Shown: one piece after another, positions 9,888 through 54,300 of the stretch
Layout of the letters: each line of letters begins with the position of its first letter
Position numbering within the stretch: the stretch's first letter is position 1
NCBI GenBank assembly: GCA_018398805.1
Contig: JAGFBZ010002556.1
Span: 620,001-684,000, forward strand
Direction of reading: 5' to 3'
Source: Hirundichthys speculiger
Taxonomy: Eukaryota; Chordata; Actinopteri; Beloniformes; Exocoetidae
Length of the DNA stretch: 64,000 nucleotides
Translations under genes and position numbers: made by a program
Notes under the pieces: generated by a model
The model's input: only the letters and a program-made list of their open reading frames with translations
Database searches by the model: none
What the model was told of the DNA's origin: nothing

Positions 9888-36845
<26,958 letters not shown>

Positions 36846-45331: not shown

Positions 45332-48300
45332 CTGTTTGCCTGCGACAGGAGGATTCCTGCGTTGTATCCACAGGAAAATTATTTTTCAATGCCTGGTGAC
45401 AGCGACTCATATTCATATATAAGTGCAAGAATTCACGCTAAACATTAGAAACTCAATTTGTGCATTTTTTTGCATTAGATCAGTTTTAACAGCTTATTTC
45501 TTTACCCACTGAAAGGAAAGAAAATTGGGATATTTGTAAGATTTGGTGAAATGTAATAATGCGTATTGTGTAGTTATTATACATGTATGTTTATGTTAAA
45601 TAATTTACCCATTTATGCTTGTTGATTTCTGTCAGAAAGCCTTGCAGGACTTTTTGAAGATTGGGCACTGGGGGGAAGAAGTACTCCTTGATCTTACTGA
45701 AAATACACAAAAGAACAAACCTTTTAAAAGTGACCTTTGTAGTAGTTTTGTTAAACTTCTAGAAAAATTCACTCCAGATCTTTTTTTTAATCCAGAAATG
45801 TTAATAAGGAGAAAAATTACACTACAACTATGACTTTCGATTCATTTAATTCCCCCTGGGGGATATGACATGCCCCCCCCCCCCCCCCCCCTTTTTTTTT
45901 TTTTTTTTTGGCTTTTTGACAGATAATATGAATGAGAGATGAAAGTTCTACCTGCTGTAAAAGCAGAAGACACTGACGGAGATGATGATCAATAGCACAG
46001 GAACGGAGATGCACCAAATGAGCAGCAAGTCTGAAAAGATTAGATGAACACGATTACATTTCACTGGATCCATGGATGTAGTTTTAGGGGGGGACACAGG
46101 GGACATGCTGATGGCAACTTTAGAAAAATCAGAGTTAGTGAGCTTGTAGCATCCGCGGCCTAACCCCGACCCCCAGTATCAGTATCCAAACCAGTTGCAT
46201 CTGTGCTCAAAAACAAAAATGAGGCGAAATCGCACATCAGAAAATGACTGGAAGTCTTTACTGATGTAACTATACTTGAAAACTTGTGAAACAAAATGCC
46301 ATGTCAAAGGTCAGCGGAGATCAAGATGGTCATTCATCATCACCTTGATTCACTGGTTTGGTGTTACACTATGACAATTACACGTTCCATTGGTTTAATT
46401 ATTCATTTATTTATGAGCAGTAAAGTTGTTGAATAAAAGTTGTGCAACTTCTTTCTTGAATGTTTAAAGCTTACCGACGTCAGCTGCCGTGTCACCGGTG
46501 AGCACATGTGACCAGTCGCTCCAGTGACCAGAGTAAATGGTCCCAGTGGGTTTTGCCCTGATCTTAACGCTGAACCGGCTTCGTCCTGGAATCTTTGCAC
46601 ATGTGTTCGTCTCGGGGCCCTTTTTTATCTGTGGACAGAAGTGACGCAGTGACATCGGTGATGATGCATTACTTTCAAGTGTTTCTCTTAGTCGTCTCGT
46701 TTCCATCAAAGTGCATTTATATTTGCTTGTAATACCTTGTTTTGATGTAAATGTGAATATTACATACACGCTTATGAATTCGACCATTTTGTCAGCTGGC
46801 AGTGGTGCAGCACCCAGTATTATATCTTAAGAGTCAAAGATTCCTTACTTATGTATCTAATTACTGAGTAGGTAGTTTTATTTTTATTTTTTTAGTAGTG
46901 GGATTGAAACAACAGCCACAACTCTCAGTTTGCAGGAGAGCCTCTACGAATTAACATGAGAAAGTTCTCCAGTCGTAATAATACATTACAGCAGTGATTC
47001 CCAAAGTGTGGGCCGCGGCCCCCTGGTGGGCCGTCGCAGTACTGCAGGTGGACCGTGAAAGGTCATTAAAATGAAATATGTTTTAAATCCGCTATCTTTT
47101 TTTAAATATGTTTTTAATTGCCATAAAATATTAACGACATGATTTAAAAACATTAATAAGTAACAAAACAAACCAGTTAAGTGTGATTCTACCATCATCT
47201 TAACTTAATATGACAAGTGTCACCTTATTTGTTGACCCCTTACATTAATATCTAAACATAGCTTCTAGTCCTGTATGTTGATCGCAGTTATGATTAAAGG
47301 TTCCGGTGGGTCACTGAGATTTTTCACATTTCAAATTGGGCCTTGGTGTTCTGAAGTATGGGAATGGCTGAATTACAGTATTACTGTCATAATAACACAA
47401 ACTAGCTTGTCTCTGTGCAATTGAATGATAATGACTCAGAAAACTCCAGTTTACCTCCCATTGTTCTCCTCCTTTGATCTGAAAGTGAACTTCATACTCT
47501 AGGTGGGCTGACAAGGATGGAAAAGGGGCTTCCCAGTCCAAGCACAACTTATCTTTTGTGGACACTCCTTTCAGACAACCTGGTGGTGATGTTTTAACTG
47601 TGAACGTAAAAGTATGCAAAATCTATGAGCAGACAAATCCATGAACTTTTCTTCTGGGGCTTCATCTACAGACTGTGAAGCGTTCTAATGACAATACAAG
47701 GAATCTTAAAGGCGGGTTAAGCAACATCTGGATGATGTCTCATCTATGGATGTTTCAAATAGAACCATCAACAAAATACGGAGCGCTATCTCGCCCCATC
47801 ATGAACTCTCCCCATCAACATGTGCATGAGCATGAGCATGAGCTCTACTCCTATTGGTGATTGGATGGAGGAATGTTGGGGGTTGTTATTGTAATGTTTT
47901 GCTAAATTTGTACTATTAGTTTCCAGTTTATGGAGCCAGAAGTCTGAAGATCGGTGTCTATCTGTTTAACAGTGTATTTATGAGATCAGCAGGTAGAGGA
48001 TGGCGAGGAGATAAAGGCCAAATGTGACAAAAAGTCTGCTCTGGGTTAAAAAATCAAATATAATCTCCTACCCTAACTTTAGAGATGACAGGAGCTGAAA
48101 CATGCAGTTGACTGTACCTACTACGGGCTAAAGAGCTTTTCTGACTTTCATCAGCCTTTCAGTTTAATGATTCACCAAATATATAGAAAAAAAAATTGAG
48201 TCAGTGTGAGTATGTCATATTCATGACTCACTCCAGATGTTTAGTGAAATAATGCTCAATACAACCCCGATTCCAAAAAAGTTGGGACGCTGTGTAAAAC

Positions 48301-51300
48301 GTAAATAAAAACAGATTTGCGAATCTCATAAACCCATATTTTATTCCCAACAGAACATAAAGAACATATCAGATGTTGAAACTGAGACATTTTATCATTT
48401 CATGGAAAACATTAGCTCATTTTAACTTTTAAACAGCAGCACATCTCGAAAAAAGCTGGAACAGGGGCGACTAAAGACTGGAAAAGTAATTGGGGCAACA
48501 AATCGAAAACAAATGGAGGAGCATTCGATGACTAATTAGATTTTACTGACAACGGGTCAGTAACATGACTGGTTATAAAAGGAACATTTCAGAGAAACAG
48601 ATCTTCCTTTAGATGTAAAAATGGACAGAGTTTCACCAACCAAAGAAAAAAATAAACAAACAAAACTGGATGAATTTGATCTTAGGAGCCCTCTGGTGGC
48701 ACTACAGCCTGAAGAGTACTGTTAAGGTTTAGAGCAGAGGTGTCCAACTCCAGTTCTCCAGAGCCGCTGTCCTGCAGGTCTCAGATGTTTCCCTTCTTTA
48801 ACGCACCTGATTCAAATGAATGGGTCGTTAGACTTGGGCAGACCTGGATGAAAAGCTGAGATCCATTCATGAGAATCAGGCATGATGTGTCAGAGAAACA
48901 TCTAAGACAGTGATTCCCAAAGTGTTGGCCGCGGCCCTCTGGTGGGCTGTCATGGTACTGCAGGTGGGCCGTGAGAGGTCATTAAAATTAAACAAATATG
49001 TTTTAAATCCTCGACCTTTTTTAAATACGTTTTTAATTACTGTAAAATATTAACGACATGATTTAAAAACATTAAGAAGTAACAAAACAAACCAGTTAAG
49101 TGTTATTCTGCTGTCATCTTAACTATTATAACAAGTGTCACCTTATTTGTTGACCCCTTACATTAATGTCAGAACATAGCTTCTAGTCCTGTATGTTGAT
49201 CACAGTTGTGATTAAAGGTTTCGGTGGGCCGCGGAGATTTTTCACATTTCAGATTGGGCTTTGGTATTCTGAAGTTTGGGAATGGCTGCTCTAAGACATG
49301 CAGGACAGTGGCCCCTTGAGTTTGGACGCCCCTTGTTTGGAGCAACATCTGCTCCCATCCAGACAGGACCTCTTTCAGGGGAAGGCCTTGCATATTTCAG
49401 CAAGACAATGCTAAACCACAAACTGCATCCATCACAACGGCATGGCTTCACAGGAGAAGAGTGCAGGTGCTGAACTGGTCCTTCCTGCAGTCCAGACCTT
49501 TCACTGATAGAAAACACTTGGTCCAAATGGAAAAATCTGTCAACAAAGGTCCAGGACTGTCGAGCAGCTGGAATCCTCCATCAGCCAAGAATGGGACGAC
49601 AGTTCTCTCCTAAAATTCCAGCAACTGGTCTCTGCATGTCTTCAAACATTAACAGATAGTTTGTTAAAGAAGAGGTGATGCTACACAGCAGTTGTTGTGT
49701 AGCATCACAGAGCTGCTGCCATCAAAGTCAAAATGAGCTAATATTTTAATTTGGGAAACATTTTTGCTGCATTTGATTTGTGAATGGAGAACGCCTAAAT
49801 GTAACACCCCAAAATGCACGACCGGCTGCTATGGGAGAGGGTGGCTGAGAATCGTTTTGTAACTGGATTCATGTGATATCATTACAGTGCACACGCTCTG
49901 TAGTTTTAACACCTCCAACAGGAGAAACGGGAGCAATACTCACTGGACTTGTTGAGCAAGAACTCTTCCGTAATGTAGGTTCTGTTGATTGAAGGCGAAG
50001 TGCTGCTGAGCTTGACCCTGATTTGTTTCGACTCGTCTCCACGAAAGTAACACGTGTCAGTAACGATGCTATCAAGCAGACATTCGGTCCATTCAGCGTT
50101 TTTCCTGCAATAGTTGTATTATCGTCATGTCAAACACACAAATCAAATGTAATGTTACCTCTTTATGCATGCTTTGACTAAACTATGACATAAACTGGAG
50201 TCATACAGACTTTTCGCTTTCATCAGTACAACTATTTTACTTTACTTTAGTCAGCCACAACATTACTGTGAATTTATCACATACTAATTGAGAACTATTT
50301 TGGATCTGTAATAAGTGTTTTTTTTCTGCTTACCCAAGATTCATCTTGTAGAAAAGTTTGTCATTATTTTCTTGATCATTTGTGTGACCATCCCAGCGAC
50401 AGGTAACAGTCTGCAGGTCGGAGGTGAAGCACATCAGTGCAATGTCATCTGGAAGGAGAAACGGTGTCGCACACGTCAGTAAAAAGGAGCTTTTCTTTTT
50501 CTTTTTTGCTCTTGCGTACTCGTTCATACAGCCGGCCTTGACTCAGTTAGACACACCTGCTTTCTGGGGAACTGCAGCTCTGACGGGCTGTGACCAGCTG
50601 CTCCAGTGTCCTGCATCCGAAAACTGAGGGGCTTTTACAGCAACCTGGACCTCAACCACCTCACCTGGTTCAAGCGAGAGCTGCACGACGCTTTCCGTCA
50701 CCTGAAACCATCAAGATTATCAACTATAGTTTATACAAACCTTCAAAAAAAAAAAAAAAAATATTAAACGTTGCCATCCAGGTGAATGTTACACTGAGTC
50801 TGAGTGGAAACCAAATTTAGGTTACAAAGTTTGGTGCAAAAAACATGTTTGAGGAAAAAAAAAGTTTTTGTTTTGTAAATTAGTAAAGAAAAGACCACAG
50901 GAATGTTTGACAAATCTGAAATATAACTTATTTAATCAATTCACTTGATTGTGAAGTTTTATTTTTTTTTGTGTTTTTATCACTTGAAAAAAAAAATGAA
51001 TACCCAAAAATAGATTATGAAATTATTCTTGATGACCTTGTTTTGCTGTTGGTGTTACTTTTTAAACTTGTCTGAAAACTCCTTTTGTACATGTTTCAGT
51101 TCTATGGGTCTTTTGATTTGAACCCCTAACCTCTAACCCCTAACCCCAACTCTAATCCTACCTCTAACCCCTAACCTCTAACCCTAACTCTAATCCTACC
51201 TCTAACCCCTAACCTCTAACCCTAACTCTAATCCTACCTCTAACCCCTAACCCCTAACCCAACTCTAATCCTACCTCTAACCTCTAACCCCTAACCCTAA

Positions 51301-54300
51301 CTCTAACCCTAAACCCTAACCTCTAACCCCTAACCCTAACTCTAATCCTACCTCTAACCTCTAACCCCTAACCCTAACTCTAATCCTACCTCTAACCCCT
51401 AACCCCTAACCTCTAACTCTAACTCTAATCCTACCTCTATTGTCTGGATTCCATGAGCCTTGGAGGAGTAACGAATCTTGTACTTGAATTCCAAGTATTT
51501 CATGTATTTTGTGTGCCATGAAACCTGCAGTTGTCCCACATGGTCATTTGGGTGTAAAGACACATTGAACGGAGGATCGAGAAGATCTGTAATGAAAAAA
51601 AAAGAGAAAAATTTTGGTTCTTATGTCGTTGTAGTCAAGAGATTCAGTTATAGAAGAAGTGCAGGCTAGATGGTGTCCAAGTATCATTCAAGAAAATTGG
51701 GAAACTCACCAACCTTTAGCCCTGCTATTTAAAATAGATTATTTCTATTTTTCTAACACTATTTAGCTTCCTTCCACCTTGTACTTCAAAATAAGATGCA
51801 AGAGGAAGATGCAAGGATGGATGCAAAGATGGATTAGCTGCAAGGATGCAAAGTTTTCACGGAGTCCCCTGAAGGAAAAGGGAAAATATCTTTAACTTTG
51901 GTTCTCTCTTGCTTTTGAGGTACCTTGCAATATGTTTTTGTGTTCTCTCACAATGCATTTTTGCATCCCTCTCATAACTATACACACCTCAGAATATTTT
52001 TAAGAGGACTTGGTCACAGCTTTGAGGTTACCAGTTTGCAGGGCAGCTTCCAAACACTGTGAGCATATAAACCAAAAAAAAGACACCACCCATTCAACAG
52101 ACCTTTTGGTCATTCAGTGAAGTAACACTGACCAATGGACAATATGTGGTGTCAAGCAGAAAAGTGCTCTACCTGATAGTGTTTGTTGGAAAAGGGTTAG
52201 GGTTAGGGTACCATCTGCATATCTTCTTTCCTTCACATCTCCTCTTTGTTTTTTTTCCCTCCTCCCTTGCAGCTTCATTTCCAGCATCCTTCCACCAATA
52301 TATTAACTATCCCTCCTCCATATTCTGTATGTCCAAACCATCTCAACCTGGCCTCCCTTATTCAGTCTCCATCACGTCTCGCCCTGGCTGGAGACTTTGG
52401 TATAGTTGCGCTTTGATCCCATCAGCCCTCGTCACTCCCAAAGAAAATCTCTCCCTTCTGTCTCTCGGTCAGCAACATCATCTCTAAACCACATGGAAGG
52501 GCTCGACTATCTACTTCTATCACTAATAGCTCCAGACACCGTTCTCCTCTTGCTCCACCTTCACTGAACAAGCTTCTTCATCTCCCCCCGTTGCAAAAAC
52601 TGGGAAGGTAAAAGTATTGCAAGGAAATACAAAATAAAAACTCTGTTCAGTCCCTTTTAGAGCAGTGGTCCCCAACCCCCGGGCCGAGTTTTTTTTTTAA
52701 GTTTTATTTATTATACAAGTCTGAACAAGCTTTTATTGTGAAAAATCTTTTATTCTGAAAAATGATCGGATTCTCTCGGTTACATCTCAGTCGCTTATGC
52801 GCCAAAATGGTAACCCAGCTAGCAAAATGAGTAAGAAACAGACGTCTTTGGAAAGTTTCCTTGTGAAGGGGAAAATGCACAATTAAGAGAAAGAAGAACA
52901 GCCTACGACTTCCAGGAAAAAGAAAGCTTTTAACCGACAATACCAGGAGTCCTACTGAAATATGGATTTATCATGACAGGTGATTCTACGTACTAAGCTC
53001 GGCGTGAGTTTTTTTTTTTTTTTTTTTTTTACCTCCAGCAAGGAGGTTATGTTTTTGCCGGCGTTTATCTGTTTGTCTGTGTTCAAGATAACTCAAAAAG
53101 TTATGAATGGATTTAGATGAAATTTTCAGAAGTTGTCAGAAATGTGAAAAGGAAGAACTGATTTCATTTTGGGTGTGATCCAGAAGAAATCCTGGATTCT
53201 GGATCACTTTCAAATTTTTGATAATTGTTGTGCTTGGCGGAGGTCTGTGCCTTTCTAGTTTTTATATTTAATGGGTATAGAGGATGTTACCAGAGACTTC
53301 AATATTATACTCATGTTATGTTATTGGCGTAATGTAATGAGGAAGCTTGTGGTAAAATTGTGAAGCGTTGACCGGTCCGCGGTTACAAAAAGGTTGAGGA
53401 CCACTGCCTTAGAGGGCTCTTTAAGTATTTGGACAGAATTCCTTTAATTTACCTTTTTAAAAGTAGCAAAAATGTGACAAGGGTAGAAATGTTTGCTTTA
53501 TGATGAATCAAATATCACTTTTTGCTGTTATTTAATCAACAAATCAACCAAGATAAAATGCAGAAGCAGTTTCTAAAAAAAAGATAAGAGTACCACACTT
53601 ACGCTTTCACAGGAAATGAAACGCCCTCAATCATTTGATAAGGAGGGAGTGACCACCTCTGTTAAAGACAAGTTTTAGTTCTTATTGCAGAATTCAGGTG
53701 TTTGTTAACACACAGTTGCTTTTTCATCAAAAGCTATTATTTTGTTTTAATAAAGTGAAAAGCAGATGCCAACTTAGAGTGAGTCAGACTGTGCAACGCT
53801 GAGAAAACCTGCTAAAAAAAACTCCAAAACTGCATCTCGGACTCTTCCAGGCCTTTGGCAGCATGTTCAATGTTAAAACTCACTACGGTGCAGAGAAGGT
53901 TTGCCGGAGCAAAGTCTCTTCTTTCTAAAGAGAACATGCTGAAGAGGCGCTGGAGGCCGACATCACTGCTCACTGCTCTGTGTCTGGCTGCTGGACTGCT
54001 TCATCTCTGCAGGATACTGGCGGCAAACACTATCACAAACACCATCACAACTCAAACCACCACACAAACTCACACCTACTACACCACACACGTTACACAC
54101 ACAACGTCATCACTGTCTGTCTCGTGTCTTTTGTTTAGTGTCTTTATCTGTCCCTAACTGTGCTTTTGTTCTCCACTGTCGGTGATTTAAGTCCTCTCTG
54201 ACAGAATCAAGGTTCAAGGAGTTAATAAAGCACGTTAGATTTGACAGTCAGAGAGGACTGGTGATGCACACACTCACACTTGCGCACAAGAAAACTGACA

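What the first reader, a model, noticed from the sequence alone, without database searches (positions are those of the whole stretch)
51121..51586. Minisatellite built from the mpl exon 4 splice donor, in telomere-like sequence
The exon ends ATAGAG|GTAGGATTAGAG. The intronic array repeats TTAGAG|GTAGGATTAGAG about every 38 bp, giving at least six decoy donors identical over the core to the real one within 300 nt. Use of sequence past the true donor adds GTA GGA TTA GAG and so on, then an in-frame TAG after 11 codons. The array may have grown from the exon-intron junction, or the donor may have been captured by a telomere-like array. Copy number could tune receptor mRNA output by splice-site competition.
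Basis: partly seen in the sequence, partly recalled or inferred. Interest (0 to 1): 0.75.

Follow-up and report, generated by a model that had tools for sequence, protein, structure and literature searches.

The report
Telomere-like repeat carries a splice donor
In a fish blood-cell receptor gene, a short telomere-like repeat array starts exactly at the end of an exon and contains the cut-here signal of that exon plus six identical copies of it; similar arrangements are known in two human genes, so this is a notable new example rather than a new kind of thing.

Summary
The mpl (thrombopoietin receptor) exon 4 donor, ATAGAG|GTAGGATTAGAG, is the first unit of a 314-nt array of 38-bp units. Six further copies of the nine-base donor lie at +45 to +273. 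Reading past the true donor meets TAG after 11 codons, so every decoy product is predicted unproductive. The array belongs to a class of degenerate TTAGGG-like arrays scattered over this 1.04-Gb fish genome. Its exact 19-mer occurs only here, but the underlying change, loss of a T from GTTAGG, is common elsewhere, mostly as GTAGGG and rarely as GTAGGA. The exon end looks old: Glu in 96 of 120 homologues. I favour a telomere-like array that took over the donor, over an array grown from the junction, with moderate confidence. No RNA data were available, so decoy use is unproven. Precedents: the human ABCA7 intron-18 VNTR, whose first GT is the exon donor, and the IFI6 minisatellite. In ABCA7, repeat length changed exon skipping, not decoy use, which argues against simple donor competition. 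New points: a telomere-like unit, UAGG (hnRNP A1) motifs overlapping every donor, and a complementary telomeric tract in intron 3.

The parts
51435..51586 (-). mpl exon 4 (152 nt, phase 1 in, phase 0 out), ends ...CAG ACA ATA GAG
   Evidence: reading frame and homologues
51433..51434 (-). true GT donor of exon 4, first two bases of the intronic array
   Evidence: exon-exon join supported by protein alignments
51121..51434 (-). 314-nt telomere-like 38-bp minisatellite at the 5' end of intron 4 (TRF's 7-bp row extends it 5 nt into the exon, to 51439)
51388..51389 (-). decoy donor GT at +45 (GAG|GTAGGA)
51350..51351 (-). decoy donor GT at +83
51275..51313 (-). unit 4 of the array: telomere-like TTTAGGG where the other units have GTAGGA
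51273..51274 (-). decoy donor GT at +160
51236..51237 (-). decoy donor GT at +197
51198..51199 (-). decoy donor GT at +235
51160..51161 (-). decoy donor GT at +273
51399..51401 (-). in-frame TAG met by read-through and by every decoy product, before the first decoy
50702..51434 (-). mpl intron 4, 733 nt
50557..50701 (-). mpl exon 5, starts GTG ACG GAA
52194..52210 (+). short telomeric tract GGGTTAGGGTTAGGGTA in intron 3, inverted relative to the intron-4 array (CCCTAA in the mpl RNA), so complementary sequences flank exon 4

Best explanation
A degenerate telomere-like minisatellite sits at the very start of intron 4 of mpl, G-rich strand in the sense direction, and has taken over the donor of exon 4. 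The exon end (Glu codon GAG) is ancestral; the intronic half of the donor is now an array unit in which GTTAGG lost a T and became GTAGGA, a better donor. Unit exchange spread that variant, making six decoys. Most transcripts probably use the exon-adjacent donor. Decoy use and intron retention hit TAG at codon 12, and exon 4 skipping shifts the frame, so each would give unproductive mRNA: the array can lower receptor output but hardly diversify it. The likeliest regulator is hnRNP A1 on the dense UAGG motifs, which overlap every donor. Shown: anatomy, membership of a telomere-like class, a unit private to this locus, conservation of the exon end. Inferred: donor takeover, unit exchange, hnRNP A1, mRNA decay, any effect on output.
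For: Array search: 125 matches at 77-100% identity on 39 contigs (hand count, mpl's own included) from 40 scored of 1390 first-look candidates. The exact 19-mer is private to mpl, 5 of 5 hits, while TTAGRGGTAGGRTTAGRGTTAG has 118 hits, 0 for the reversed control; of the 100 listed, 4 are in mpl and 96 elsewhere (18 not listed). GTAGGATTAGAG occurs in other arrays on C12 and C275. Unit 4 has TTTAGGG in the donor position; units 6 and 7 are identical. Glu at the exon end in 96 of 120 homologues. Predicted U1 pairing -9.3 kcal/mol for the true donor and all six decoys, -6.2 for the two GAG|GTTAGG sites tested. TAGG 25 times in the 314-nt array, 0 in the other 419 nt of the intron, 131 in the 64-kb sense strand. 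hnRNP A1 motif UAGG; binding just downstream of the donor goes with exon repression (PMC4932749, passages).
Against: The true donor is identical to the repeated motif over 12 intronic bases and the exact unit is private to mpl, which a junction-born array also explains. Elsewhere the T-loss variant is nearly always GTAGGG: only 4 of the 96 listed outside places have GTAGGA and one of these GTAGGATTAGAG. No relative's intron was seen, so the order of events is inferred. No RNA evidence. The T of ATAGAG may be a chance substitution. A check of 40 other array edges found no second exon-abutting case.
Confidence: 0.5

Rival explanations
1. The array grew from the exon-intron junction by tandem duplication, so the decoys are descendants of the original mpl donor.
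For: The exact donor-bearing 19-mer is found nowhere else in 1.04 Gb; GTAGGA is rare in other arrays (4 of 96 listed outside places); the array stops within 5 nt of the exon end; the 38-bp unit is homogeneous, whereas the top TRF rows of the other loci are mostly periods 6, 7, 13 and 20.
Against: Units carry no exon sequence beyond TAGAG; the rest of the unit is ordinary telomere-like words of a genome-wide class; T-loss variants arise elsewhere without mpl; unit 4 would need several changes all toward the telomere form.
Confidence: 0.25
2. Chance and neutrality: with very many telomere-like arrays, one happens to abut an exon; decoys are silent and the array has no effect. (About function, so it can hold together with either origin.)
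For: A rough estimate gives about 6 array edges within 5 nt of a donor by chance, from 1390 first-look candidates taken as arrays and an assumed, recalled 200,000 donors. In ABCA7 one-unit retention is about 2%, by my reading of the order of two figures (PMC5954066, passages).
Against: Decoys have the same nine bases and the same predicted U1 pairing as the true donor; the similar ABCA7 VNTR goes with altered splicing and expression.
Confidence: 0.4
3. Array length tunes Mpl output by donor competition.
For: Six identical decoys within 273 nt, all leading to a premature stop.
Against: In ABCA7, VNTR-unit retention did not change with length, whereas skipping of the next exon did (PMC5954066, passages). 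No length variation is known here; exon 4 has a single match in the assembly, so only one allele is held.
Confidence: 0.15
4. The array acts by RNA pairing: its UUAGGG units pair with the CCCUAA tract in intron 3, looping out exon 4 and promoting its skipping or circularisation, much as the 38-bp TERT intron-6 repeats promote skipping.
For: A 30-mer at the intron-3 tract is the best partner of the array among 6361 30-mers of the sense strand (-37.4 kcal/mol at 52210). TERT precedent with compensatory mutations (PMC3948165, abstract and passages).
Against: Two unrelated 30-mers elsewhere in the window reach -35.2 and -34.3; TERT needed at least nine repeats, here there are eight units; the tract may be an unrelated small telomeric insert.
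Confidence: 0.12

Closest known systems
Human ABCA7 intron-18 VNTR ('An intronic VNTR affects splicing of ABCA7...', PMC5954066; passages seen)
   Same: Minisatellite (25-bp unit) flush with the exon end; its first GT is the exon donor; a donor one unit downstream can be used and gives a frameshift with a premature stop.
   Different: Non-telomeric unit in a region those authors call C-rich; polymorphic, hundreds to thousands of bp; length goes with exon 19 skipping and lower expression. Here a G-rich telomere-like unit in a fish, one allele, no RNA data.
Human IFI6 (6-16) minisatellite, Turri et al. 1995 (paper not held; title seen in reference lists, and one describing sentence in PMC4526556)
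   Different: There two downstream repeat units serve as donors and give isoforms; here decoy use would hit a stop codon.
Human TERT intron-6 38-bp repeats (PMC3948165; abstract and passages seen)
   Same: 38-bp intronic tandem repeat; RNA pairing with other parts of the pre-mRNA shown there, possible here.
   [quoted passage not shown] the equal unit length was not examined further and I take it as coincidence.
Interstitial telomeric sequences (PMC7215372, PMC2246262; passages seen)
   Same: TTAGGG-like arrays, some in introns; a few nucleotides in register at the insertion point are frequent.
   Different: The surveyed short ITSs were chosen for near-pure TTAGGG; this array is a degenerate 38-bp unit. 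Those authors name an effect of intronic telomeric repeats on splicing as interesting to test.

Membership tests
Donor-containing intronic minisatellite (ABCA7/IFI6 kind) | tandem array whose first unit supplies the exon's donor | tested here: met
Donor-containing intronic minisatellite (ABCA7/IFI6 kind) | further units carry the same donor sequence | tested here: met
   6 identical nine-base donors
Donor-containing intronic minisatellite (ABCA7/IFI6 kind) | downstream units are used as donors in RNA | not testable with these tools
   no fish RNA reads available
Donor-containing intronic minisatellite (ABCA7/IFI6 kind) | array length varies between individuals | not testable with these tools
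   one allele only; exon 4 has a single match in the assembly; identical units 6 and 7 suggest recent exchange
Interstitial telomeric sequence | array of TTAGGG-type hexamers at a non-terminal site | tested here: met
   18 TTAGGG and 22 TTAGAG in the array, about 671 kb into a 771-kb contig, so about 100 kb or more from either contig end
[quoted passage not shown]
   the longest perfect run is two units; mismatches per unit were not scored as that paper did; hence filed only as telomere-like
Interstitial telomeric sequence | empty orthologous site in a relative | not testable with these tools
   fish proteins but no fish intron DNA were reachable

The most novel reading that the evidence does not exclude
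A telomere-like array replaced an ancestral splice donor, and concerted evolution then couples the two: selection improved the exon-adjacent unit from GTTAGG to GTAGGA, and unit exchange copied that improved donor into the array as decoys, so donor and minisatellite evolve as one. The same UAGG that makes the donor is an hnRNP A1 site, making mpl output sensitive to a splicing repressor that also binds telomeric repeats.
Probability: 0.25. Interest if true: 0.65.

Novelty: new member of a known kind. Interest (0 to 1): 0.42.

Why it matters
It is a natural case in which a telomere-like repeat appears to supply an exon's splice donor, and it makes testable a question named in print (PMC7215372, passage): whether telomeric repeats within introns affect splicing. 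It also suggests how such a repeat class can be tolerated at an exon end, since words such as GAG|GTTAGG are latent donors.

Tried and rejected
Looked for a second allele or paralogue of exon 4: one match only. Looked for other exon-abutting arrays: 41 G-rich-strand array edges in 30 loci, mpl's included (of 44 loci held, 12 duplicates were dropped and 2 gave no edge with 300 nt upstream; the loci were the 8 best and the first 30 by contig). Apart from mpl, 21 open frames of 35 aa or more reach an edge; 20 of the 21 (longer ones cut to their last 80 aa; the one left out was itself array sequence) were scanned against Pfam: no hit above a curated cut-off, two sub-threshold hits for one frame. 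This is a weak test; short exons would be missed. G-quadruplex: the pattern of four runs of three or more G with gaps of 1-7 does not occur in the array, so a G4 mechanism was dropped. The sea-bream myostatin-2 paper PMC3045353 (passages) proved unrelated. A search for hnRNP A1 and choice between two donors did not list the classic papers; that hnRNP A1 favours the upstream of two donors is recalled and not used as evidence. I do not claim that telomere-like donor arrays are absent from print: the listings of searches (20 or fewer rows seen of each, open-access library only) showed none. The first look at motif content read the arrays in one orientation only and is superseded. Recalled, from no call: the donor weight matrix, the U1 5' end and the 200,000-donor figure, and the rules of nonsense-mediated decay. 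U1 energies of the other mpl donors used shorter windows than exon 4's, so that comparison is not used. After checking, I lowered the best explanation from 0.55 to 0.5 and raised the junction-growth rival from 0.2 to 0.25, because GTAGGA, unlike GTAGGG, is rare outside mpl.
Full report
Anatomy. On the minus strand of the window lies mpl. Exon 4 is 51435-51586 and intron 4 is 50702-51434 (733 nt). The intron begins with 314 nt of telomere-like repeat (TRF period 38, 7.9 copies, 93%). The exon ends ACA ATA GAG and the intron begins GTAGGATTAGAG; GAGGTAGGA recurs at +45, +83, +160, +197, +235 and +273. With a recalled weight matrix the true donor and the six decoys score the same (7.4), above the array's GAG|GTTAGG sites (6.35); one higher-scoring GT (11.3) lies at +770, inside exon 5. 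Predicted U1 pairing is -9.3 kcal/mol for the seven, -6.2 for the two GAG|GTTAGG sites tested. Reading through gives 11 codons and TAG at 51399-51401, before the first decoy, so decoy products and intron retention carry the same early stop. Exon 4 is 152 nt, not a multiple of three, so skipping shifts the frame. That such mRNAs would be removed by nonsense-mediated decay is inferred.

Gene identity. The protein of exons 4-7 is closest to thrombopoietin receptors in the PDB set (8g04, E 4.9e-16, best stretch in exons 5-6), with leptin and EPO receptor matches running across the exon 4/5 join. Pfam matches are below the curated cut-offs (best EpoR_lig-bind, E 6.9e-5). The 388-residue model of exons 2-9 finds fish thrombopoietin receptors, best Xenentodon cancila at 66% over 100% of the query, a needlefish of the order Beloniformes. 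No tool names the species of the window.

Age of the exon end. Among the 120 listed homologues (of 150 found; some are partial or isoforms), 96 have Glu at the last residue of exon 4; the residue before it, Ile here, is Lys in 63 and Ile in 7. The corresponding exon of the second receptor module (exon 8) also ends in a GAG Glu codon, followed by GTAAAC. So the exon end looks ancestral, and a Lys-to-Ile change here may have extended the match between exon and array; this is inference, as no codons of relatives were seen. Predicted proteins vary in length at this place (by eye).

Class of the array. The genome (1.04 Gb, 3002 contigs) holds many degenerate TTAGGG/TTAGAG/TTAGGGG arrays: 125 matches on 39 contigs (hand count, mpl included) from 40 scored of 1390 first-look candidates, a lower bound. 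None of the stretches held of the seven best other loci (L002-L008) has GTAGGATT. The exact 19-mer GAGGTAGGATTAGAGTTAG is private to mpl (5 of 5 hits). The looser pattern TTAGRGGTAGGRTTAGRGTTAG has 118 hits with 0 for the reversed control; 100 are listed, 4 in mpl and 96 elsewhere, several of them within one array. Of those 96, 92 read GTAGGG and 4 GTAGGA; one, on C12, is a single base from the mpl unit. GTAGGATTAGAG also occurs in an array on C275. Loss of one T is thus recurrent in the class, while the GTAGGA form is rare. Among the top four TRF rows of 32 loci, most periods are 6, 7, 13 or 20; some loci have other longer units (43, 44, 48, 89, 121), and period 38 appears in two others with about 3 copies at 83-84%. 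The homogeneous 38-bp unit is local to mpl as far as seen.

Origin. Unit 4 (51275-51313) has TTTAGGGTTAGAG where the other units have GTAGGATTAGAG; going from the donor form to this would need several changes all toward the telomere form. Together with the recurrence of the T loss elsewhere this favours a telomere-like array that took over the intronic half of the donor. Against it stand the privacy of the exact unit and the rarity of GTAGGA elsewhere. Telomeric inserts in rodents and primates often share a few nucleotides in register with the break (PMC2246262, passages); the five shared exon bases fit that but prove nothing. The position is not surprising by itself: a rough estimate gives about six array edges within 5 nt of some donor (from a recalled donor number and the first-look candidate count).

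How it may work. The array has 25 TAGG in 314 nt; the other 419 nt of the intron have none and the whole 64-kb sense strand has 131. UAGG is the iCLIP-derived hnRNP A1 motif, and binding just downstream of a donor goes with exon repression, relieved by blocking the site (PMC4932749, passages). Here UAGG also overlaps the donor (+2 to +5). So hnRNP A1 could repress exon 4 as a whole, or silence the decoys; which dominates cannot be told. A second possibility is pairing of the array with the intron-3 tract CCCTAACCCTAACCC: a 30-mer there is the best partner among 6361 sense-strand 30-mers, though two unrelated ones come close, in the manner of TERT (PMC3948165).

Known kinds. ABCA7 intron 18 holds a 25-bp VNTR whose first GT is the exon-18 donor; retention of one unit is rare (about 2%, by my reading of the order of figures) and independent of length, while exon 19 skipping rises and expression falls with length (PMC5954066, passages). 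IFI6 has a minisatellite giving several used donors (Turri et al. 1995, not held; one sentence in PMC4526556). The fish case is the same arrangement with a telomere-like unit. A published survey found none of its 229 human ITSs in exons and 31% in introns, and named effects on splicing as interesting to test (PMC7215372, passages).

Verdict. Observation confirmed. Origin partly resolved in favour of donor takeover, moderately. Function open, with no RNA evidence. A new, well-placed member of a known kind.

Noticed in passing
52194-52210: Short telomeric tract (GGGTTAGGGTTAGGGTA) in mpl intron 3, opposite in orientation to the intron-4 array, so complementary sequences flank exon 4.
   Followed up: partly
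G000 contigs C1212 and C1062 (rows): The telomere-like GTAGGG variant recurs there at regular spacing (about 607 nt or multiples on C1212; about 5.8 kb on C1062), as if embedded in longer satellite units.
   Followed up: no
47020-47380 and 48930-49290: Two similar stretches about 1.9 kb apart in mpl introns (around CATTCCCA.ACTTCAGAA.ACCAA), apparently copies of a dispersed repeat (seen by eye).
   Followed up: no
28539-28584: A 46-base C-rich run (TRF period 1, 91%).
   Followed up: no
about 50664, inside mpl exon 5: The best-scoring donor-like site of 51600-50560 (CAG|GTGAGG, 11.3 with a recalled matrix) lies 37 nt into exon 5, a possible cryptic donor.
   Followed up: no
exon 4/5 join in homologues: Predicted fish proteins differ in length right at this join (for example Labrus bergylta and Pampus models), which may reflect shifting donors or gene-model errors.
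   Followed up: no
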